DNA of 64,000 bases from Leptotrichia hongkongensis (GTDB taxonomy: Bacteria; Fusobacteriota; Fusobacteriia; Fusobacteriales; Leptotrichiaceae). Under the pieces are notes generated by a model. It ran no database searches and was not told where the DNA came from. It worked only from the letters and a program-made list of their open reading frames with translations. The position numbers and the translations under genes are program-made. How positions within the stretch are numbered: the stretch's first letter is position 1; the number at the start of each line of letters is the position of its first letter. The DNA lies in the NCBI RefSeq assembly GCF_007990635.1, contig NZ_AP019846.1, positions 434,001 to 498,000 of the forward strand, given 5' to 3'. Below, piece by piece: positions 49,952-60,643 of the stretch.

Positions 49952-50407
49952 ATGAAAAAAGGATTTTTTTGGTTATTCTACTTATTGTTTTTAACATTTT
50001 TTGACATTGTTTTGGCGGTTATAAGGCTTAATAATAGTATTTATGAATTTTTTATAAATCTGAATATAAAGAATGAGTGGATTTTAGAAAACTTATTTTC
50101 ACTAGAAGAAATTATTTTTATCATCATTAGTTTGATTTTTGCTTATTTAATTTCAAAAATAAAAGTGAATAAAAAAAGTTTGTTAATCCCTCCATTAATT
50201 ATAGTAACAATAAAAGCGGTGATACTTTTTTTTGTATTAAAATACATAACATCCCTTGATGATACAGGAGAAAGTATATTTTTTACATTTTTCATGGTAG
50301 CAGGCTTTGGAGCTTATATGGGAATGATGAATTTATACTTTTATTTGGGGTTATTGTTTAATTTATTTAGAAGGAGAAAAAATGAAAGGAAAAAGTTGGA
50401 TTCTTAA
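49952..50407 (+). CDS. Hypothetical four-helix membrane protein
   Basis: 151 residues with four predicted membrane helices (about 5-24, 45-65, 78-98 and 110-136) and a basic C-terminus (FRRRKNERKKLDS). Family not recognised. AGGTGGAG precedes ATG 49952. Its last 26 bases overlap the start of the metallophosphoesterase gene, implying coupling. Confidence 0.6.
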   Translation: MKKGFFWLFYLLFLTFFDIVLAVIRLNNSIYEFFINLNIKNEWILENLFSLEEIIFIIISLIFAYLISKIKVNKKSLLIPPLIIVTIKAVILFFVLKYITSLDDTGESIFFTFFMVAGFGAYMGMMNLYFYLGLLFNLFRRRKNERKKLDS

Positions 50408-51224
50408 AATTTTATATGGTTTTTTAGGATTAATTATAGTATTTTTAGTGTATTCGCATTATGAATATCGAAATATAAAGATTAAAACAATTGAGATAAA
50501 GTCGAAGGATGTGCCAAAGGAGTTTGATGGCAAGAGAGTTCTGTTTGTAGCAGATTTTCAGTATGATACTATGGCACGGTATAATAGAAAACAGCAGAAA
50601 AAGGCGATTGAGCTGATTAATGCACAGAAGAAGGATATGATACTTCTGGGGGGAGATTATGCGACTTGGGAGAAAAATATTCCTAAGTTTTATGAGGATG
50701 CGAAGGATATAAAGATTCCGGAACTTGGAGTATATGCGATTTATGGGAATCATGAGTATCCAGGAGAAAAAGAAACAGCTGAAAATATGAAAAAACTTGG
50801 ATTTAATCTGCTCGTAAATGAAAATAGGAAAATAACAATAAATAATGAAAATATATATATCGCAGGAGTAACAGACTTGTGGCATGGAAAGCCTGATGCG
50901 AAAAAGGCTCTTGAAGGATTGAAAAAAGAGGACTTTGTATTATTTTTGACTCACAATCCAGAATATTTTGAGGAAATGACAGAAGATGAGAAGGAAAAGG
51001 CGGATATGACACTTGCTGGACATACACATGCAGGACAGGTTACTTTCTTTGGAAAAATTATCATGTCGGCTATAAAGGATAAGAAGAAATATGGATATGG
51101 AATGAAGGAATATAACGGTCATAAAATATACATTACTTCAGGATTAGGAGGAGCTTTCCTTGAGATGTTTATTAGATTTTTTGCACAGCCTGAGATTGTG
51201 ATTTTTGAACTTAAAAGAGGATAA
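50382..51224 (+). CDS. Membrane-anchored calcineurin-like metallophosphoesterase (YkuE-like)
   Basis: N-terminal membrane anchor (about residues 6-23) and a metallophosphoesterase domain: VLFVADFQYD (motif 1), ILLGGDY (motif 2), AIYGNHEYPG (motif 3), LFLTHNPEYF (motif 4) and LAGHTHAGQ (motif 5). It resembles YkuE/YaeI, which hydrolyse lipid-linked phosphates such as UDP-diacylglucosamine-type substrates. Odd: motif 1 reads D-F-Q where the family normally has D-x-H, so one metal ligand is replaced. ATG 50382 follows AGAAGGAGAAAAA. A paralogue with the same change is at 51764. Confidence 0.87.
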   Translation: MKGKSWILKILYGFLGLIIVFLVYSHYEYRNIKIKTIEIKSKDVPKEFDGKRVLFVADFQYDTMARYNRKQQKKAIELINAQKKDMILLGGDYATWEKNIPKFYEDAKDIKIPELGVYAIYGNHEYPGEKETAENMKKLGFNLLVNENRKITINNENIYIAGVTDLWHGKPDAKKALEGLKKEDFVLFLTHNPEYFEEMTEDEKEKADMTLAGHTHAGQVTFFGKIIMSAIKDKKKYGYGMKEYNGHKIYITSGLGGAFLEMFIRFFAQPEIVIFELKRG

Positions 51225-51695: not shown

Positions 51696-51763
51696 GAAAT
51701 AAATAGAAAAGTTATAAATCTCAAAATTAGAGAGAAAATAAAACAATTGAAAAGGAAAATTTT

Positions 51764-52606
51764 ATGATAACTAAAAAAACAGTATTTTCAGTTTTAGGAA
51801 TTTTAGCAATATTTTTTATAATCTGCCTAATTTATGCACATTATGAATATACACAGCTCAAGGTCAGAACGATAGAAATTGCTTCGAAAGATATTCCACA
51901 AGAATTTGATGGAAAGAAGATTGTCTTTGCGGCAGATTTTCAGCTAGATACTTATGCGAGATTTAATCAGAAGCAGCTTGACAGAATTATTGATTTGATA
52001 AATAAGCAGGAAAAGGATATTATAATTCTGGGTGGGGACTATACTAACTGGACTGGTAAAATTCCACGATTTTACAAAGGAATGGAAAAGTTGGAAAAGC
52101 CTAAATATGGAATTTATGCAGTTTTGGGAAATCATGATTATAATTCTGTGGAAAAAAATATGGCTGGATTGAAAAGCCTTGGGTACAAAGTGCTGGTAAA
52201 TGAAAATGACAAAATAACAGTAAATAACCAGAGTATCTACATTTCAGCAGTTGACGATTTACTAAAAGGGAAACCTGATGCACAGAAGGCGCTTAATGGC
52301 ATAAAAAAAGATGATTTTAATATCTTCGTCACACATAATCCTGATTATTTTGAAGAAATGACAAATGAACAGAAAGAAAGATCAGATATGACTTTGGCAG
52401 GACATACTCACGGTGGACAGATAACATTGTTCGGCTTGATATTATGGGCAGAAATTAAACATCCTTGGAAATATGGATATGGATTAAAGGAATATGACGG
52501 AAATAAGATTTATACTACTTCAGGTGTTGGTGGCGGAGCGTTTGAAATGTTCATAAGATTTTTTGCACAGCCTGAAATTGTGGTGCTAAAATTGAAAAAA
52601 ATTTAA
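51764..52606 (+). CDS. Membrane-anchored metallophosphoesterase, paralogue of 50382
   Basis: Same architecture and length (280) as the gene at 50382: N-terminal span (about residues 8-27), VFAADFQLD, IILGGDYTNW, AVLGNHDYN, IFVTHNPDYF and LAGHTHGGQ, and an identical C-terminal MFIRFFAQPEIVV. The pair clearly arose by duplication and now flanks a RidA gene. It too carries D-F-Q in motif 1, so the change predates the duplication and is unlikely to be a random defect. AAAAGGAAAATTTT precedes ATG 51764. Probably acts on a phospholipid or nucleotide-linked lipid at the membrane. Confidence 0.87.
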   Translation: MITKKTVFSVLGILAIFFIICLIYAHYEYTQLKVRTIEIASKDIPQEFDGKKIVFAADFQLDTYARFNQKQLDRIIDLINKQEKDIIILGGDYTNWTGKIPRFYKGMEKLEKPKYGIYAVLGNHDYNSVEKNMAGLKSLGYKVLVNENDKITVNNQSIYISAVDDLLKGKPDAQKALNGIKKDDFNIFVTHNPDYFEEMTNEQKERSDMTLAGHTHGGQITLFGLILWAEIKHPWKYGYGLKEYDGNKIYTTSGVGGGAFEMFIRFFAQPEIVVLKLKKI

Positions 52607-52691
52607 ATATATACGTAAAATCAAATAAATAAAGTACTATAATAGTTTGTTAGCAGCCAGATTATTTGATTATGAATAGGATGAATAAATA

Positions 52692-53465
52692 ATGGAAAAA
52701 ATTTTAATAACAGGAGCAAGTTCAGGAATTGGTAAAGAATTGGCAAAAAAATTAGCAATTAAAAGTAAAAAAATGTATTTGCTGGCAAGATCTTCTGATA
52801 AACTGAATTTATTGAAAAAAGAACTGGAAGAAAAAAATCCCTTAATTGAATGTATTTGTATAGAATATGATTTAACAGATATAGATAATTTAAGAAATAT
52901 TGTTGAAAATTGTGATGTTGATTTGGTTATTAATTGTGCTGGTTTTGGAAAAATTACAGATTTTTTGAAATTGAGTGATAAAGAAGATTTGGATACTGTG
53001 AATGTGAATTTTGTTTCTCCGTTAATTTTAACTAAAAAATTTTCAGAAAAATTTTTGCAAAAAGGAAAAGGAATAATTTTAAACGTATGTTCAACAGGTG
53101 CTTTATATCAGCATCCGTATATGGCAGTTTATAGTTCGGCAAAATCTGCATTATTACATTATTCTTTGGCGTTAGATGAAGAATTGGCACATAAAAATAA
53201 AGATGTGAGAGTTTTATCAGTTTGCCCCGGCCCAACGGAAAGTAATTTTTTTGATAAGAATACACAGGAAAAATTTGGAAGTTCTCAAAAATTTATGATG
53301 AGTTCGGAAGAAACAGTGAAAAAAATTATAAAAGCGATGGAAAATGGAAGAAGATTTTCCATTATTGGCTTTAGGAATAGAGTGTCCATGTTTTTAATAA
53401 ATTTATTGCCAATTTCGTTACAGCTAAGGTTAGCAGGATTAGTCTTGAAAAAGGTGATTAAATGA
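52692..53465 (+). CDS. Short-chain dehydrogenase/reductase
   Basis: Classical SDR: ILITGASSGIGKELAKKL (NAD(P) glycine motif, about residues 3-20), NCAGFGK (NAG-type motif), a catalytic Ser in NVCSTGALYQHP and Y-x-x-x-K in AVYSSAKSALL (about 145-155). 257 residues with a basic, hydrophobic C-terminus that may touch the membrane. It resembles the DltE/YqjQ-like group acting on lipid or fatty-acyl substrates. First gene of a tightly spaced cluster ending with KAS III, and the next gene begins within its stop codon, so a keto-reduction in that pathway is inferred. Confidence 0.87.
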   Translation: MEKILITGASSGIGKELAKKLAIKSKKMYLLARSSDKLNLLKKELEEKNPLIECICIEYDLTDIDNLRNIVENCDVDLVINCAGFGKITDFLKLSDKEDLDTVNVNFVSPLILTKKFSEKFLQKGKGIILNVCSTGALYQHPYMAVYSSAKSALLHYSLALDEELAHKNKDVRVLSVCPGPTESNFFDKNTQEKFGSSQKFMMSSEETVKKIIKAMENGRRFSIIGFRNRVSMFLINLLPISLQLRLAGLVLKKVIK

Positions 53466-54689
53466 TAGTATTGTTTAATTTTTTATTGATATTGGCAGTA
53501 ATCTTGCTCATTTTAAAATTAATATTTTCTTTTGTTTACTTTAAAAGAATAAATAGTCTAGAAAAAAAATAAGATAGATGAGAGCAAATACACAGTAGTT
53601 CAACCTATTTTGTCTGGAGATACAAGATTGGAAGATGATTTGTCTGCCAATTTAAAAAATACTGATGACATTAAATTTATTTGGCTTGTTGATAAAAGTG
53701 ACTGTTTAGCAAGACAGACAGTTGAAAATATTTTAAAAAATAAAAATTATTCTAGCAGAGTAGAAGTGTATTACTTAGATGATGTTCCGCAAGAAGTAAA
53801 TCCAAAAGTATTTAAATTATCGCAAGCTGTAAAGAAAATAAAAACGGAATATACGGTAATTTTAGATGATGATGCAGTTATTGACAGAAAAAAACTGGAT
53901 GAATTAAGTATTTATGAAAAAGATAAGGCTGAATGGATAGTAACCGGGATTCCTTATAATTATAATATTAAAGGCTTCTATTCAAAATTAATCTCGGCTT
54001 TTATAAATTCTAATTCTATTTTTTCATACTTTTCTATGTCTTTTTTAAAGGAAAATAAGACTATAAATGGAATGTTTTATATTTTAAGGACTGATATTTT
54101 AAAAAAATATTCTGCTTTTGAAGAGATAAAATATTGGCTGTGTGATGATTTGGCACTTGCAACTTATTTACTTTCCAAAAATGTAAAAATTATACAAAGT
54201 ACTATTTTTTGCAATGTGAGAAATACTGTTCCAAATTTTAGAAAATATATTCTTCTTATGAAAAGATGGCTTTTATTTAGCAATGTTTATATGAAAAATG
54301 CATTTTCCATTAAATTTTTATTTATAATATTATTGCCTGTATTCTTACCAGCTATTCTATTATTTTTAAGTTTTTATTTTGGAATAAATCATTTTATCAT
54401 GATAATAGTGCTATTTGTAGGAAAGGTTGGATTGTTCCATATAGTGAGATTATTTATTTATCAGTCAGAAATACAAAAGAAAGGTAATTTTTTTCATAAG
54501 GCTGATGAATTGCCGTATGAGTTAGCAAGTGAATTTTTATTGCCTTTTATACTTGTCTATACTCTTTTAACACCGCCTGTGATTATATGGAGAAATAAAA
54601 AATTAGAGTTAAAGATGGGAAAATACATTATGAAGTTTAACGACTATTTAGAAAAGCTGGAAAGTCTTGATGTTTCAAAAACTTTTTAA
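53462..54689 (+). pseudogene. Membrane GT2 glycosyltransferase (HpnI/ceramide glucosyltransferase-like), frameshift at an A8 run
   Basis: ATG 53462 overlaps the SDR stop by four bases and opens with one membrane span (FNFLLILAVILLILKLIFSF), reaching RINSLEKK and a stop right at the A8 run 53562-53569. One more A continues the protein as NKIDESKYTVVQPILSGDTRLED in the frame that runs to 54689. That part has the GT2 metal motif VILDDDAVIDRK, IKYWLCDDLALATYLL and LLMKRWLLFSN, followed by C-terminal membrane helices, as in HpnI and ceramide glucosyltransferases. Joined length about 409. The A8 run could be a slippage or phase-variation site, an error, or true decay. Confidence 0.7.
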
Positions 54690-55254
54690 AAGAAGATAAA
54701 ATTGTCTTTTTATAAGTGGAAGCAGTAATCTTAAAACAGCTGCCTTAGGACAAGAAAGATTTGAGATTTTAAATATTTTTAAGCAATTTGGATACAAAAT
54801 TATAAATTCAAATTTTCCATATAATGAAGATTTTGAATATGATGAATATGAAGACATCAGCATTTTTAAAGCAAGTTTATCAAATATTGTTTATTATTCT
54901 GGCACTCTTTTTAATAAAAAATTTAAACAGGAAATTTTAAGGCACTTAGAGCCTGTTAAGCATTTAAAAGATGTGATAGTTATTTCTTTAAGCTCAGGCT
55001 TAAATGTTTGGAATAAATTTATGGATTTAGCAAATTATAATAATGAGAATATTACGATGTTTGCTTTAGGACCTGTAGCGAAAGGTTATGGAAACTTGAA
55101 AAATACAGTAGTTATTAAGGGAAGTTTAGATATTTACAGCTGGCTTCTAGATTTTCACAAGACTGATAGAATTGTAAATTGTGGACATTTGGAATATTTT
55201 AAGGATAGAAAGGTAAAAGAAATAATTTATGAATATTTACAAGGAAAAAATTGA
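54670..55254 (+). pseudogene. Unknown cluster protein, disrupted near its N-terminus
   Basis: ATG 54670 lies inside the 3' end of the GT2 gene and reads MFQKLFKRR before a TAA at 54697. The same frame then stays open without a usable start as CLFISGSSNLKTAALGQERFEIL through to 55254 (about 185 residues). Either one nonsense change or two compensating homopolymer indels (54688-54711, other frame reading EDKIVF) would explain it. An internal GTG/ATG near 54973 would give only 93 residues. The segment ISGSSNLKTAALG and later VIVISLSSGLNVWNKF suggest an alpha/beta fold, but I recognise no family. Confidence 0.5.
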
Positions 55255-56500
55255 AATTGCAGTTGTTGCTCCACCTTTTAGCGGACATCTCTATCCAGCT
55301 TTAGAGTTAGTTCTCCCTCTATTAAAGGAAAAGGACAAATACAATATCTGTATTTATACAGGTTGTCAAAAAGAGGAAGTCGTAAAGAAACTTGGATTTC
55401 CTGTAAAAGTTTTTCTTAGAGATAATCCTGCTATCTTTGAAAAAATATCTGATACTGATAAACAGACTAATCTTCGGATTATGTATAAGCAATTTAAAGA
55501 AAATATGGGACTTATGCCAGAAATAATAAGAGAAATGGAAGATTTTTTTTCTGAAAGAAAGCCTGACATAGTTATAGCAGATTTTACAGCCGTTCCAGCA
55601 GGATTTGTGTGCAAAAAAAATAATATTCCTTGGATTACAAGCATTCCAACACCATTTGCAATAGAAAGCAGAACAACAACACCTGCTTATATGGGAGGAC
55701 TATATCCAAGAGATAATTTTTTATTCAAACTAAGAGATAGTATAGCAAGAAACATTGTCAGAAATTTTAAAAGAATGGTTTGTTTTATTTTAAAAAATCA
55801 ATTAAGACAATTTAATTTCACTTTGTACAACGAAAAAGGTGAAGAAAATATTTATTCTCCATATTCCATACTAGGTTTAGGCATGAAAGAAATTGAATTT
55901 AGAGATGATTTTCCAAGTCAATTTTCTTGGGCTGGGCCTTGCTGTTCGTCCCTTTTTAAAAATAGTGTGCAATTTGAAAATAATAAAAAATTTGAAAAAA
56001 CTGTATTTTTAACTAACGGGACGCATCTAAAATGGGCTAAAAAGTTAATAATTGAGCTGGCAAAAGAACTTTCAAAAATCTATCCTGAATTTCTGTTCGT
56101 AGTCTCGTTGGGAAGTTATTTAGAAAAAGATAAGAGTATTGTAAAGGAAAATAATTTACATATTTATCATTATTTAGATTATGATGAAATTTTGCCCAAT
56201 ATAGATTATGTTATTCATCATGGCGGAGCAGGAATACTTTATTCCTGTATAAAATATAACAAGCCTGCTGTTATTGTTCCTCATGATTATGACCAGTTTG
56301 ATTATGTAGTAAGGGCTGATTTAGCTAAAATTGGAATACCAGCTAAATTAAAATCAAGAAAGTCCATTTTAAAGGCTTTTAAGAAAATGATAAAAAGAGA
56401 AGAATGGAACAATTTGGAAAAATTATCAAAAGAATTTAATAATTATTTACCAAGTGAAATGTTGAAAAAAGAAATTGACAGGCTGTTAAAAGGAGGATAG
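55229..56500 (+). CDS. GT1-family (MGT/UGT-like) glycosyltransferase
   Basis: GT-B fold transferase: IAVVAPPFSGHLYPALELVLPLLK at the N-terminus (acceptor domain with His), SPYSILGLGMKEIEFRDDFPSQFSWAG in the middle and the donor-site signature YVIHHGGAGILYSCIKYNKPAVIVPHDYDQFDYVVR (about residues 328-363), with the H-x-G-x-G-T-like core. Similar to macrolide, zeaxanthin and rhamnolipid glycosyltransferases that glycosylate hydrophobic hydroxyls. 423 residues, intact. The start overlaps the previous frame by 26 bases. In this cluster it would attach a sugar to the lipid product. Confidence 0.86.
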   Translation: MNIYKEKIEIAVVAPPFSGHLYPALELVLPLLKEKDKYNICIYTGCQKEEVVKKLGFPVKVFLRDNPAIFEKISDTDKQTNLRIMYKQFKENMGLMPEIIREMEDFFSERKPDIVIADFTAVPAGFVCKKNNIPWITSIPTPFAIESRTTTPAYMGGLYPRDNFLFKLRDSIARNIVRNFKRMVCFILKNQLRQFNFTLYNEKGEENIYSPYSILGLGMKEIEFRDDFPSQFSWAGPCCSSLFKNSVQFENNKKFEKTVFLTNGTHLKWAKKLIIELAKELSKIYPEFLFVVSLGSYLEKDKSIVKENNLHIYHYLDYDEILPNIDYVIHHGGAGILYSCIKYNKPAVIVPHDYDQFDYVVRADLAKIGIPAKLKSRKSILKAFKKMIKREEWNNLEKLSKEFNNYLPSEMLKKEIDRLLKGG

Positions 56501-56502
56501 CG

Positions 56503-57486
56503 ATGAAGGTTTTAATCACAGGGGCAACTGGTTTTCTAGGAAAATATGTAGTTGAAGAATTGAAAAATAATGGTTATCAGGTTGTTGCATTTGGAAGAAA
56601 TGAGAAAATTGGCAAGACTTTGATTGACAGTAATGTTGAGTTTTTTAAGGGAGATATAGAAAATAAGGAAGATTTGCTAGGAGCTTTGCAAGGATGCAGT
56701 GCAGTAATTCATGCTGCGGCATTATCTACAGTTTGGGGTAAATGGAGCAATTTTTATAAGGTAAATGTGTTAGGAACTCGAAATATTGTTGAAATTTGTG
56801 AGAAGCAAGGCCTAAAATTAGTTTTTGTTTCATCTCCCAGCATATATGCTGGGGGAAAGGATCAGCTAGATGTTAAGGAAAATGAGGCTCCAAAGGATAA
56901 TAACCTTAATTTTTATATAAAAAGTAAAATTATGGCAGAAAATATAATCAAGAATTCCAAGCTAAATTATATGATAATTCGCCCACGTGGATTATTTGGA
57001 ATCGGAGATACAAGCATAATTCCAAGACTTCTAGATTTGAATAAAAAAATGGGAATACCTCTTTTTGCTGATGGAAAACAAAAAGTCGATGTAACTTGTG
57101 TTGAAAATGTTGCCTATGCTTTAAGGCTGGCACTAGAAAATGAAAAGTATTCACGGCAGACTTATAATATAACAAATGATGAGCCGATAGAATTTAAGGA
57201 AATTTTGACATTGTTCTTTAACGAGATGGGAACAGAAGGTAAATATTTAAAATGGAACTACAGACTAATTTTAATTCTAGTTTCAATTTTAGAAAAAGTT
57301 TATAAACTTTTTGGAATTGAAAAAGAGCCTCCTCTTACCAAATATACGCTATATTTAATGAGATACAGCCAGACTTTGAATATTGACAAGGCAAAAAAAG
57401 AATTAGGATACTATCCCCAAATATCTGTCCTTGAAGGAGTAAAAAAATATGTTAAGCACATCAGAGAAAATGATAGAAAAAGTTGA
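56503..57486 (+). CDS. NAD-dependent epimerase/dehydratase (3-beta-HSD/OleD-like extended SDR)
   Basis: Extended SDR: VLITGATGFLGKYVVEEL (G-x-x-G-x-x-G, about residues 3-20), AVIHAAALSTVWGKWSNFYKVNVLGTRNI, VFVSSPSIYAGG (catalytic Ser) and Y-x-x-x-K in NFYIKSKIMAEN (about 135-146), then IRPRGLFGIGD. The S-T-V-W-G-x-W region and R-P-R-x-[IL]-[FY]-G-x-x-D resemble the 3-beta-hydroxysteroid dehydrogenase group that includes OleD, the 2-alkyl-3-ketoacid reductase of long-chain olefin synthesis. 327 residues. GGAGG precedes ATG 56503, only two bases after the GT1 stop. Confidence 0.87.
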   Translation: MKVLITGATGFLGKYVVEELKNNGYQVVAFGRNEKIGKTLIDSNVEFFKGDIENKEDLLGALQGCSAVIHAAALSTVWGKWSNFYKVNVLGTRNIVEICEKQGLKLVFVSSPSIYAGGKDQLDVKENEAPKDNNLNFYIKSKIMAENIIKNSKLNYMIIRPRGLFGIGDTSIIPRLLDLNKKMGIPLFADGKQKVDVTCVENVAYALRLALENEKYSRQTYNITNDEPIEFKEILTLFFNEMGTEGKYLKWNYRLILILVSILEKVYKLFGIEKEPPLTKYTLYLMRYSQTLNIDKAKKELGYYPQISVLEGVKKYVKHIRENDRKS

Positions 57487-58279
57487 ATATTTTGCCTGCG
57501 GCTATTGTACAAATGATTTAAAGAAGGTTTTTAAAGGTTTTGGTAAGACAGTAGTTGATTTTTATGCGGGAGTGTTTTTGATAAAGCATAAAAGAATGGG
57601 CTATATTCTTTATGATACTGGTTATTCTATGGATATTTTAAAAAATAAATTTAAATATTTTTTGTATAGATTTCCCAATCCGATAACCTTAAAAAAAGAA
57701 GATACAATTGATTACCAGCTTAGAAAAAAAGGTATAAGTATAGAAGAAATAAAATATATAATTGTTTCACATTTACATCCTGATCATATTGGAGGATTGA
57801 AATTTTTTCCAAACTCTAATTTAATATTAACTGAGACTTGCTATAATAGTTTTAAGTCAAAAAAAGATAATATTTTGATTTTTAATGAACTTCTGCCAGA
57901 TGATTTTGAAAATAGATTGACATTGATAAGAAAGGAAAATTATAAGGAAAACAAGTTGTTTTTGTATAAAAATAGTTTTGATTTATTTTCTGATTCATCT
58001 ATGCTTATGGTTGAGATAGATGGACATGCAAAAGGTCAGGCATGTGTATATATGCCGGAATTAAAACTGTTTATTGGTGCTGATGTATGCTGGGGGACTG
58101 AATATCTTCCGTTTACAGATAAAATGAAATGGCTTGCTAGAAAAATACAGAATAACTTTGAGGATTACCAGCAGGGAAGTGATTTTTTAAAAAAATTGTT
58201 AAAAGATGATATTTCTGTTGTAGTCAGTCATGATAATAAAGAAAAGGTAAAGAGGATATTGAATGAAAAAAATATTTAA
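57449..58279 (+). CDS. Metallo-beta-lactamase fold hydrolase (AiiA/lactonase-like)
   Basis: MBL fold with the complete dinuclear zinc set: VSHLHPDHIGG (H-x-H-x-D-H, about residues 106-116), DGHAKGQACVY (third His), IGADVCWG (bridging Asp) and VVSHDN (last His). Closest in style to N-acyl-homoserine lactonases and other lactone hydrolases, here 276 residues. The ATG at 57449 has GGAG nine bases upstream and overlaps the epimerase gene by 38 bases; ATG 57470 is an alternative. In the cluster context it may open a lactone or thioester intermediate; substrate unproven. Confidence 0.83.
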   Translation: MLSTSEKMIEKVEYFACGYCTNDLKKVFKGFGKTVVDFYAGVFLIKHKRMGYILYDTGYSMDILKNKFKYFLYRFPNPITLKKEDTIDYQLRKKGISIEEIKYIIVSHLHPDHIGGLKFFPNSNLILTETCYNSFKSKKDNILIFNELLPDDFENRLTLIRKENYKENKLFLYKNSFDLFSDSSMLMVEIDGHAKGQACVYMPELKLFIGADVCWGTEYLPFTDKMKWLARKIQNNFEDYQQGSDFLKKLLKDDISVVVSHDNKEKVKRILNEKNI

Positions 58280-59537
58280 AATTATATCAAGTTTTATAAA
58301 AATAAGATATTTTAATAAATGGAATTCACGAGATAAACTTTTGGAATACCAAAAAAAGCAGGTAAATAAACACTTAAAATTTCTAAAAGAAAAATCTCCA
58401 TATTTTAAAACTCACGAAATTTCTGAAAATTTTGTTATGAACAAGGTATTTATGATGGAAAATTTTGATGAACTTAATACTTTAGGAGTAAAAAGGGATG
58501 AAGCCATGGAAATCGCCTTAAATAGTGAAAAAACAAGAAATTTTGATCAGAAATACAAAGATATTTCAGTAGGGCTGTCTTCTGGAACTTCTGGACATAG
58601 AGGAATGTTTATTACTACTCCTGAAGAGCAAGGTATATGGGCAGGGACGATTTTGGCTAAAATGCTGCCTAAAAATAGCATTCTTGGACATAGAATAGCA
58701 TTTTTCCTAAGAGCAGACAATGATTTGTATAAATCTATAAATTCTTTTTTAATAAGTTTGGAATATTTTGACACTTTTAAAGATATTGATGGACATATTG
58801 AGAGGTTGAATGAATACAATCCAACTATTATTGTTGCTCCCCCCTCCTTACTACTAATGCTGGCTAAAAAGATAGAGGAAGGCAAATTAAAAACTTTTGT
58901 GAAAAAGGTTGTTTCAGTTGCAGAAATTTTGGAAAAACCTGATGAGGAATATATAAAAAAGCAGTTTAATTTAAAAGTAATTCATCAGATTTACCAGGCG
59001 ACAGAAGGTTTTTTAGCCTGTACTTGTGAATATGGACATCTTCATTTGAATGAAGATTTAATAAAATTTGACAGGAAATATATAGATGCAAAAAGATTTT
59101 ATCCGATAATTACAGATTTCAGGAGGACAAGCCAGCCTTTTGTAAATTACTATTTGAATGATATTCTAGTTGAATCAGAAGAACCATGTGAGTGCGGTTC
59201 TGTTTTACAGAGAATTGAAAAGATTGAAGGGCGTTCAGATGATATTTTCAGGTTTATAAATAAATTTGATAAAGAAATTACTGTATTTCCAGATTTTATT
59301 AGAAGAACAATACTTTTTGCTGAGAATATAAGAGAATATCAGGTTTTTCAAATAAATAGCAATTTACTGGAGATTGCAATTTTGAATGTAAATAATGAAC
59401 AAGAAAAGTTGGTAAGAAAAGAATTTGATAAATTGTTCAATTCTTTGGATATAGAAAATGTAGAAATCAGATTTATAGATTATAAAACAGATAGCACAAA
59501 AAAATTAAAAAGAATAATAAGAAAGGTTATAGAATGA
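58263..59537 (+). CDS. F390-synthetase/PaaK-like adenylate-forming ligase
   Basis: Adenylate-forming enzyme of the CapK/PaaK/F390-synthetase branch: SVGLSSGTSGHRGMFITT (AMP-binding loop, about residues 101-118), IIVAPPSLLLMLAKKI, VISVAEILEKP-like segment, IHQIYQATEGFLACTCEYGHLHLNED (about 240-265), NYYLNDI and a C-E-C-G-S zinc-like element (EPCECGSVLQRIEKIEGRSDD). 424 residues. It would activate a carboxylic acid as an acyl-AMP and pass it to a thiol or other nucleophile. ATG 58263 overlaps the MBL gene by 17 bases, and its own stop overlaps the KAS III start by four, showing strong coupling. Confidence 0.82.
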   Translation: MKKIFKIISSFIKIRYFNKWNSRDKLLEYQKKQVNKHLKFLKEKSPYFKTHEISENFVMNKVFMMENFDELNTLGVKRDEAMEIALNSEKTRNFDQKYKDISVGLSSGTSGHRGMFITTPEEQGIWAGTILAKMLPKNSILGHRIAFFLRADNDLYKSINSFLISLEYFDTFKDIDGHIERLNEYNPTIIVAPPSLLLMLAKKIEEGKLKTFVKKVVSVAEILEKPDEEYIKKQFNLKVIHQIYQATEGFLACTCEYGHLHLNEDLIKFDRKYIDAKRFYPIITDFRRTSQPFVNYYLNDILVESEEPCECGSVLQRIEKIEGRSDDIFRFINKFDKEITVFPDFIRRTILFAENIREYQVFQINSNLLEIAILNVNNEQEKLVRKEFDKLFNSLDIENVEIRFIDYKTDSTKKLKRIIRKVIE

Positions 59538-60463
59538 GAAGAATTCAATTTAAAGGATATGGAATAGAATTACCAAAAAATACAGTTGAACTTAAAGGAC
59601 AAGTTCGTTATAGAATAAGTGAAGGTGAAAGCCAAATTTCTCTTGCTGTTTCCGCCTGTGAAAAAGCGTTAAAAAATACAAATATAACAATTAATGATAT
59701 TGATTGCATAGTTTCAGCCAGTGCTGTCGGAATACAGCCTATACCATGCACAGCAGCCCTAATTCATGAAAAAATAGCAAAAGGGACTTCAATTCCAGCT
59801 CTTGATATAAATACTACCTGTACAAGTTTTATAACTGCACTGGATACCATGTCATACCTTGTAGAAGCAGGAAGATATGAAAGAGTACTGATAGTTTCCT
59901 GCGATGTAGCTTCAAAAGCCTTAAATCCAAAACAAAAGGAAAGTTTCCAGCTTTTCAGCGATGGAGCGGCAGCATTTGTAATTGAAAAAACTGAAAAGGA
60001 AATAGGAGTTATTGATGCAATACAGAAAACATGGTCAGAAGGAGCACATTCAACTGAAATTCGAGGAGGTTTAAGCAATTTTCATCCCAAAAATTATTCT
60101 GAAATTACAAAAGAGGAATATATGTTCGATATGAACGGAAAAACAGTATTGTCTCTTTCAATAAGCAAAATTCCTGAATTAATGAAAAATTTTCTAAAAA
60201 ATAATGGAATGAAAGTCTCAGATATAGATATGACAGTTCCCCATCAGGCTAGCGTTGCAATGCCTCTTGTAATGCAAAAATTAGGAATAGAAAAAGATAA
60301 ATTTTTAGACGAGGTCAAGGAATTTGGAAATATGGTATCAGCATCTGTTCCTATAACATTAGTTCATGGACTGGAAAATGGAAGAATTAAAAGCGGCAAT
60401 ACAATCTTGCTTATTGGAACAGCGGCTGGACTTACTACAAATATGATGCTAATTAAATTATAG
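59534..60463 (+). CDS. Beta-ketoacyl-ACP synthase III-like condensing enzyme
   Basis: Thiolase-fold condensing enzyme with the complete FabH triad: Cys96 in DINTTCTSFITAL, His236 in TVPHQASVAMPL and Asn266 in EFGNMVSASVP. The Gly-rich C-terminus is GNTILLIGTAAGLTTNMM. 309 residues, slightly shorter than housekeeping FabH (about 320), and it starts with an unusual RRIQFKGYGIELPKNTVEL. It is placed last in the glycosyltransferase/ligase cluster rather than beside fab genes, so it likely performs a special Claisen condensation, as in OleA- or alkylquinolone-type systems. The ATGA overlap with the ligase gene suggests coupled translation. Confidence 0.87.
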   Translation: MRRIQFKGYGIELPKNTVELKGQVRYRISEGESQISLAVSACEKALKNTNITINDIDCIVSASAVGIQPIPCTAALIHEKIAKGTSIPALDINTTCTSFITALDTMSYLVEAGRYERVLIVSCDVASKALNPKQKESFQLFSDGAAAFVIEKTEKEIGVIDAIQKTWSEGAHSTEIRGGLSNFHPKNYSEITKEEYMFDMNGKTVLSLSISKIPELMKNFLKNNGMKVSDIDMTVPHQASVAMPLVMQKLGIEKDKFLDEVKEFGNMVSASVPITLVHGLENGRIKSGNTILLIGTAAGLTTNMMLIKL

Positions 60464-60547
60464 CTATAATTAATAATAATTTTTTAAGTTTGGAATTTTT
60501 TATGTTAAAATAAAGAAAGTAAATGTAAAACTTGGAAGAGGTATGAA

Positions 60548-60643
60548 ATGGAAGAGAAAGAAATAAAGATTTTTCAGATGTTTTTTATCATTGGGATTGT
60601 TATTAATTATTTTACGAAAGGTCTGAAAGTCAATGAAGTTTAA
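60548..60643 (+). CDS. Possible 31-residue membrane peptide
   Basis: ATG 60548 follows AGAGGTATGAA and encodes a charged start (MEEKEIKIFQ), one hydrophobic helix (MFFIIGIVINYF) and TKGLKVNEV. It overlaps the next gene by 11 bases, so it may be a leader peptide coupling translation to it. Short length makes it uncertain. Confidence 0.3.
   Translation: MEEKEIKIFQMFFIIGIVINYFTKGLKVNEV

What the first reader, a model, noticed from the sequence alone, without database searches (positions are those of the whole stretch)
52692..60463. Unassigned glycolipid/polyketide-like biosynthetic cluster
Eight overlapping or near-contiguous genes encode an SDR, a polytopic GT2, an unknown protein, a GT1, an OleD-like epimerase/reductase, a lactonase-like MBL hydrolase, an F390-synthetase/PaaK-like ligase and a KAS III with full Cys-His-Asn triad. 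Condensation, reduction, acid activation, lactone or thioester hydrolysis and two glycosylations form a plausible route to a glycosylated long-chain or aromatic lipid. It partly recalls ole (olefin/beta-lactone) clusters, but the glycosyltransferases and the PaaK-type ligase do not fit. Stop-start overlaps imply one transcript.
Basis: inference. Interest (0 to 1): 0.72.

Follow-up and report, generated by a model that had tools for sequence, protein, structure and literature searches.

The report
Conserved lipid-making gene cluster, product unknown
An oral Leptotrichia carries an eight-gene block, built around a four-enzyme core that recurs in the same company across several bacterial phyla (including the probiotic E. 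coli Nissle 1917); it probably makes a sugar-decorated lipid, but I found no paper describing its product or function.

Summary
Window 52692-60463 (a Leptotrichia genome) holds eight same-strand genes: SDR, GT21-like GT2, a small unassigned protein, GT1, OleD-like reductase, MBL hydrolase, TIGR02304 ligase and KAS III. The block is present or absent as one clean ~7.9 kb unit among Leptotrichia species (3 of 13 genomes). All eight genes are under purifying selection, and the cluster recurs colinearly in other Fusobacteriota. Its core (KAS III, OleD-like, MBL, TIGR02304 ligase) recurs adjacent in Bacillota and Pseudomonadota, including 674 of 5426 complete E. coli genomes, with different decorating genes in each lineage. 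It is therefore not a chance assembly of housekeeping genes.

In this assembly GT2 and the unknown gene are broken by four homopolymer indels; similar indels elsewhere in the assembly make assembly error the likelier cause. The unknown protein has a conserved Ser-Asp-His set suggesting an alpha/beta-hydrolase.

It is an analogue of the ole pathway, not a member: KAS III lacks OleA's essential Glu117, and the ligase is PaaK-type. Hopanoid and sphingolipid routes are disfavoured by missing genes. Best reading: a dedicated glycolipid pathway on a conserved acyl-condensation/activation core. Product and step order are inferred; I found no published description.

The parts
52692..53465 (+). SDR oxidoreductase (classical short-chain dehydrogenase), 257 aa
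   Evidence: PF00106 2e-40; best NCBIfam scores far below cut-offs, including mycolate reductase 98 bits against 380; dN/dS 0.11
53462..54640 (+). GT2, membrane glycosyltransferase of the ceramide-glucosyltransferase (GT21)/HpnI type; 392 aa and intact in relatives, frameshifted here (extra A at 53562-53569, missing A near 54597-54602)
   Evidence: PF13506; intact F0557 copy matches ceramide glucosyltransferase 26qf over its full length, E=2.7e-4, and HpnI at 49 bits; indels
54615..55254 (+). Small protein (213 aa in relatives), no known family; proposed alpha/beta-hydrolase (Ser in QSSGLN, Asp168, His187); split here by two missing T (54683-54687 and 54707-54711)
   Evidence: Conservation in 7 homologues; no Pfam or PDB match; indels
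55229..56500 (+). GT1 glycosyltransferase (MGT/UGT/sterol-GT-like), 423 aa; missing from the cluster in G045, G071 and F. vincentii
   Evidence: TIGR01426 55 bits; PDB: UGT203A2, Kcn28, sterol 3-beta-glucosyltransferase; absence
56503..57486 (+). CORE: OleD-like / 3beta-HSD-family reductase, 327 aa
   Evidence: OleD-type NCBIfam models 188-198 bits against cut-off 580; S110/Y138/K142 invariant in 20 homologues
57449..58279 (+). CORE: metallo-beta-lactamase-fold hydrolase, AiiA/AttM-lactonase-like, 276 aa
   Evidence: PF00753; AttM 57 bits against 390; full HxHxDH/H/D/H metal site invariant; PDB AiiA
58263..59537 (+). CORE: F390-synthetase-related adenylate-forming ligase, TIGR02304, 424 aa
   Evidence: TIGR02304 688 bits against cut-off 252; PDB PaaK 4r1l; adenylation motifs and K414 invariant
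59534..60463 (+). CORE: KAS III (FabH superfamily), 309 aa; second copy besides the FabH-type gene at G000:C1:604524
   Evidence: PF08541/PF08545; C96/H237/N266 invariant, OleA Glu117 position is Ile/Leu; PDB best MxnB 4v2p, CorB 4yuc; second copy
52604..60506 (.). Whole presence/absence block (approximate ends)
   Evidence: Window 51728-52600 and 60507-60572 are contiguous in G009 and G004, which lack the cluster

Best explanation
A dedicated accessory pathway for a glycosylated lipid, built on a widespread four-enzyme core. Most likely route: (1) the TIGR02304 ligase adenylates a free acid, either the starter or the finished hydroxy acid; (2) KAS III, by FabH-type Cys-His-Asn chemistry, condenses an acyl thioester with a malonyl-type unit to a 3-oxoacyl chain; (3) the OleD-like reductase (and the SDR) reduce it to a 3-hydroxy product; (4) the MBL hydrolase, and perhaps the small alpha/beta-hydrolase-like protein, release or edit a thioester or lactone; (5) the ceramide-glucosyltransferase-like GT2 and then GT1 glycosylate the hydroxylated lipid at the inner membrane. 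SHOWN: gene content, order, intact core active sites, selection, joint gain/loss, cross-phylum core. INFERRED: substrates, step order, product.
For: Colinear cluster in Fusobacteriota. Core adjacent in 9 of the 11 annotated plasmid records inspected, plus unannotated B. stagnalis by tblastn and the chromosomal E. coli locus. Clean empty site. Purifying selection. Complete core active sites. A separate KAS III gene exists elsewhere in the genome, so this one is dedicated. GT2 resembles ceramide glucosyltransferase and HpnI, both of which act on membrane lipids. In other lineages the core travels with lipid-type genes: OlsE-like hydroxylase, acyl-CoA desaturase and PAP2 in E. coli; sulfotransferase in Rhodobacterales.
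Against: No product or enzyme activity is known. GT2 and the unknown gene are broken in this assembly, so this strain may not make the full product if the indels are real. GT1 is dispensable in three genomes. No ACP gene lies in the cluster. The sequence does not decide between malonyl extension and head-to-head condensation, nor between an aliphatic and an aromatic acid.
Confidence: 0.5

Rival explanations
1. A non-orthologous ole-type pathway: KAS III does OleA-like head-to-head condensation of two acyl chains, the OleD-like enzyme reduces the 2-alkyl-3-keto acid, the ligase plays OleC (beta-lactone closure) and the MBL enzyme plays OleB or opens the lactone; the glycosyltransferases decorate a mycolate-like or beta-lactone lipid.
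For: The four core activities map one to one on OleA/D/C/B; the reductase is closest to OleD among NCBIfam models; the MBL enzyme is lactonase-like. PMC7064751 describes an oleACD cluster with a glycosyltransferase (Actinoplanes).
Against: OleA's Glu117 (essential, followed by Pro; PMC7064751) is Ile/Leu-Pro in all 19 homologues. KAS III scores higher against FabH/MxnB/CorB than OleA. The ligase is TIGR02304/PaaK-type and the hydrolase is MBL, not the alpha/beta-hydrolase OleB.
Confidence: 0.2
2. An MxnB/CorB-like ketosynthase joins two chains into a pyrone or diketone aglycone, later reduced and glycosylated (polyketide-like glycoside).
For: Best solved-structure matches of KAS III are MxnB (137 bits) and CorB (128 bits), slightly above FabH (123); GT1 resembles macrolide glycosyltransferases.
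Against: The score margin is small; there is no PKS and no ACP in the cluster; the partner genes in other phyla are lipid-type.
Confidence: 0.1
3. The ligase activates an aromatic acid as KAS III starter, giving a short aryl-alkyl lipid (flexirubin/dialkylresorcinol-like logic) that is glycosylated.
For: PaaK-type ligase; weak match to flexirubin ligase FlxY (55 bits against 520).
Against: No ammonia-lyase, aromatase or DarA/B homologue in the cluster; DarB match only 37 bits against 550.
Confidence: 0.12
4. The cluster is decaying or non-functional in this strain: GT2 and the neighbouring gene are true pseudogenes.
For: Four frame-breaking indels in 1.15 kb against both close relatives.
Against: All four are single-base homopolymer changes. 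The same assembly has such indels elsewhere, including three in a GHMP-kinase gene that I read as phosphomevalonate kinase, and one in a TruA-like gene. In-frame stretches of GT2 and the unknown gene keep dN/dS about 0.2, and the other six genes are intact.
Confidence: 0.25

Closest known systems
oleABCD / oleACD (olefin and beta-lactone) pathways
   Same: Four-part logic: thiolase-fold condensation, OleD-type reductase, adenylate-forming enzyme, hydrolase
   Different: KAS III lacks OleA Glu117; the ligase is TIGR02304/PaaK-type instead of OleC; MBL instead of OleB; glycosyltransferases added
NCBIfam TIGR02304 (F390 synthetase-related protein)
   Same: The ligase is a full member (688 bits, cut-off 252)
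   Different: The family name carries no tested function
KAS III core in E. coli between narI and purU (674 of 5426 genomes; Nissle 1917, ABU 83972)
   Same: KAS III, OleD-like, MBL and TIGR02304 ligase adjacent; 27-39% identity to the window proteins
   Different: Accompanied by PAP2, OlsE-like sterol-desaturase-family and acyl-CoA desaturase genes instead of SDR and glycosyltransferases; KAS III comes first
Ceramide glucosyltransferase / HpnI (GT21)
   Same: GT2 matches over its full length
   Different: Far below the HpnI cut-off; no hopanoid cyclase and no sphingoid-type synthase over cut-off in the genome
MxnB / CorB ketosynthases
   Same: Closest solved KAS III relatives
   Different: No polyketide synthase context; only about 14 bits better than FabH

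Membership tests
TIGR02304 F390 synthetase-related protein | Score above the curated cut-off (251.9 bits) | tested here: met
   688.1 bits over positions 1-429 of 430
ole pathway | OleA with catalytic Glu117-Pro | tested here: not met
   Ile/Leu70-Pro71 at the same spacing from the Cys in all 19 homologues; the Glu rule is from PMC7064751
ole pathway | OleD equivalog score | tested here: not met
   188-198 bits against cut-off 580; homologous but not an equivalog
ole pathway | OleC and OleB homologues in the cluster | tested here: not met
   Ligase is TIGR02304/PaaK-type, hydrolase is MBL fold; the small protein might be an alpha/beta-hydrolase but has no OleB match
FabH-type KAS III | Cys-His-Asn triad | tested here: met
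   C96/H237/N266 invariant in 19 sequences
FabH-type KAS III | Malonyl-ACP-dependent decarboxylative condensation | not testable with these tools
   Needs an enzyme assay
Hopanoid (hpn) glycolipid cluster | Squalene-hopene cyclase in the genome | tested here: not met
   No PF13243 match in G000; search control positive in B. subtilis
Bacterial sphingolipid pathway | Serine palmitoyltransferase / alpha-oxoamine synthase | tested here: not met
   Only a 23-bit TIGR01822 match, cut-off 493; a divergent enzyme is not excluded
Ceramide glucosyltransferase-like GT21 | Full-length homology and PF13506 | tested here: met
   PF13506 1e-21; 26qf over residues 7-386, E=2.7e-4
Ceramide glucosyltransferase-like GT21 | UDP-sugar donor and lipid acceptor | not testable with these tools
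   Needs an enzyme assay

The most novel reading that the evidence does not exclude
The KAS III / OleD-like / MBL / TIGR02304 core is an undescribed general lipid-scaffold module, convergent with but independent of ole, which lineages cap with different polar groups (sugars in Fusobacteriota, sulfate in Rhodobacterales, hydroxylation/desaturation in E. coli), giving a new class of bacterial lipids present in human oral bacteria and in probiotic E. coli.
Probability: 0.3. Interest if true: 0.8.

Novelty: new variant of a known kind. Interest (0 to 1): 0.55.

Why it matters
A four-enzyme core of unknown product recurs across at least three phyla, including about 12% of complete E. coli genomes. 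If it makes a defined lipid, that lipid has gone unassigned in a very well studied species, and it can be tested with one deletion in a harmless E. coli strain. In Leptotrichia and a Fusobacterium the same core carries glycosyltransferases, pointing to an oral-bacterial glycolipid.

Tried and rejected
Hopanoid glycolipid: rejected, no squalene-hopene cyclase. Sphingolipid: disfavoured, no alpha-oxoamine synthase over cut-off. Orthologous ole cluster: rejected on Glu117, OleC and OleB. Chance neighbourhood of housekeeping genes: rejected by the empty site and cross-phylum conservation. Foreign composition: GC of the block is like that of the window, no signal. Structure of the unknown protein: single-sequence AlphaFold gave pLDDT 41, too poor for a fold search; profile and Pfam searches gave nothing. 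Viral contigs: no relative. Genome-contig scan found only two Leptotrichiaceae contigs, because it reaches close relatives only. Literature: nothing on TIGR02304 or this cluster in the held library; the ladderane paper PMC2649909 mentions only a PCL/F390-type gene in another context. Survey of other phyla by the genome search was not possible: the centre must be a genome handle.
Full report
WHERE IT IS. The window lies in a Leptotrichia genome (G000:C1:434001-498000). The only named close relative reached is Leptotrichia sp. oral taxon 879 F0557, 98% identical in the ligase. Eight genes run on the + strand at 52692-60463. GC content and skew do not set the block apart from the rest of the window.

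FAMILIES. SDR; GT2 of the GT21/HpnI type; a 213-aa protein without any family; GT1; OleD-like 3beta-HSD-family reductase; AiiA/AttM-like MBL hydrolase; TIGR02304 ligase (688 bits, cut-off 252); KAS III. Solved-structure relatives: KAS III to MxnB 137, CorB 128 and S. aureus FabH 123 bits, OleA about 55; ligase to PaaK; GT1 to UGT203A2, Kcn28 and sterol glucosyltransferases; reductase to sterol-4-alpha-carboxylate dehydrogenase; MBL to AiiA; intact GT2 of F0557 to ceramide glucosyltransferase over its whole length.

BROKEN GENES IN THIS ASSEMBLY. Against both G001 and G011 the window has four single-base differences in homopolymer runs: one extra A at 53562-53569, one missing A near 54597-54602, and one missing T at each of 54683-54687 and 54707-54711. 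In relatives GT2 is an intact 392-aa protein and its neighbour 213 aa. As a control I compared 117 genes (119 kb) of G001 with G000: three frame-breaking indels sit in a GHMP-kinase gene that I read as phosphomevalonate kinase, and single homopolymer losses in a TruA-like gene, a TPR-protein gene and a membrane-protein gene (these names are my reading of the sequences). A mevalonate-pathway gene would be expected to be needed, so local assembly error is the likelier explanation. True pseudogenes are not excluded, since four indels in 1.15 kb is a dense cluster. In-frame stretches of the two genes keep dN/dS of 0.21 and 0.20.

A REAL UNIT. In 10 of 13 Leptotrichia genomes the cluster is absent although the flanking metallophosphoesterase-type genes and leuC are present and close together. 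In G009 and G004 the sequences flanking the block (window 51728-52600 and 60507-60572) are contiguous, so about 7.9 kb holding just these eight genes is present or absent as one unit. dN/dS between G011 and G019 is 0.07-0.18 for all eight genes. G019, of another genus, carries the cluster beside the same metallophosphoesterase and leuC genes; other genera carry it elsewhere. A Fusobacterium vincentii record has it at 77-85% identity, as close as G019, although 15 or more other Fusobacteriaceae genomes searched lack it; that pattern suggests horizontal transfer.

VARIANTS. G045, G071 and F. vincentii lack GT1. G020 and G027 lack the small protein and have the order SDR-GT2-GT1-OleD-KAS III-MBL-ligase. 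G083 holds the same seven genes in another order, and G082 shows a partial set near its locus edge.

THE CORE. Of 11 annotated plasmid records inspected that encode a TIGR02304-like ligase, nine have KAS III, OleD-like, MBL and ligase adjacent: Pontibacillus, Paenibacillus, E. coli, two Paracoccus, Ketogulonicigenium, Rhizobium, Paraburkholderia and Pseudomonas FeN3W. In Pontibacillus and Paenibacillus an ATP-grasp gene is interleaved. Pseudomonas Leaf58 has the MBL and ligase together with an OleD-like gene a few kb away, and P. amygdali has the ligase alone. Unannotated Burkholderia stagnalis also has the four by tblastn. In E. coli the locus lies between narI and the tyrT/purU region and is found in 674 of 5426 complete genomes, including ABU 83972 and Nissle 1917. 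Accessory genes differ: PAP2, OlsE-like and acyl-CoA desaturase in E. coli; sulfotransferase and TetR in Rhodobacterales; ATP-grasp and GNAT in Paenibacillus and Paraburkholderia; DUF3419 in Rhizobium. Pairwise distances of the four core proteins correlate (Spearman 0.72-0.84 over all, 0.41-0.60 among distant members). That is compatible with co-inheritance, but shared ancestry alone raises such values.

ACTIVE SITES. Nineteen to twenty homologues keep complete catalytic residues in all four core enzymes. The position of OleA Glu117, which a published study found essential and followed by Pro (PMC7064751), is Ile or Leu followed by the invariant Pro71. An OleA mechanism is therefore unlikely, and FabH-type chemistry remains possible.

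THE SMALL PROTEIN. Seven homologues share S-S-G at 122-124, D168 and H187. The order (strand, Ser elbow, helix; then Asp; then His before the last helix) resembles an alpha/beta-hydrolase. The single-sequence model places a strand at 120-125 and a helix at 130-140 around that Ser, but its pLDDT is 41, so this is a lead only.

MECHANISM. The commitment is a glycolipid pathway on a conserved acyl-condensation and acid-activation core (0.5). Gene content, conservation, selection and intact core sites are shown. Substrates, step order and product are inferred. Hopanoids and sphingolipids are disfavoured by missing genes; the KAS III is a second copy beside another KAS III gene, so it is a dedicated enzyme.

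NOVELTY. No paper in the held library describes TIGR02304 or the cluster; subscription literature and preprints were not searchable, so prior description cannot be excluded. I rate it a new variant of a known kind, interest 0.55.

Noticed in passing
53562-54711: Four single-base homopolymer indels against both close relatives, all within 1.15 kb; the rest of the eight-gene block has none.
   Followed up: yes
G000:C1 about 531361-532420 (outside the window): A GHMP-kinase gene that reads like phosphomevalonate kinase carries three frame-breaking indels in this assembly.
   Followed up: partly
60536-60640: Remnant of the 5' end of a gene that is full length in F0557 (L023:12286-13122) and G019, apparently truncated in the window just downstream of the block.
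   Followed up: partly
50382-51224 and 51764-52606: Tandem paralogous metallophosphoesterase-like genes (57% identical) upstream of the block; copy number varies between Leptotrichia genomes.
   Followed up: no
L058 (NZ_CP084075.1, Fusobacterium vincentii SB055): A 2.1 Mb chromosome-sized record filed as a plasmid; it carries the cluster without GT1 and looks like a horizontal acquisition.
   Followed up: partly
G001:C1:1811823-1813244: leuC of relative G001 holds one in-frame TAA in its assembly.
   Followed up: no
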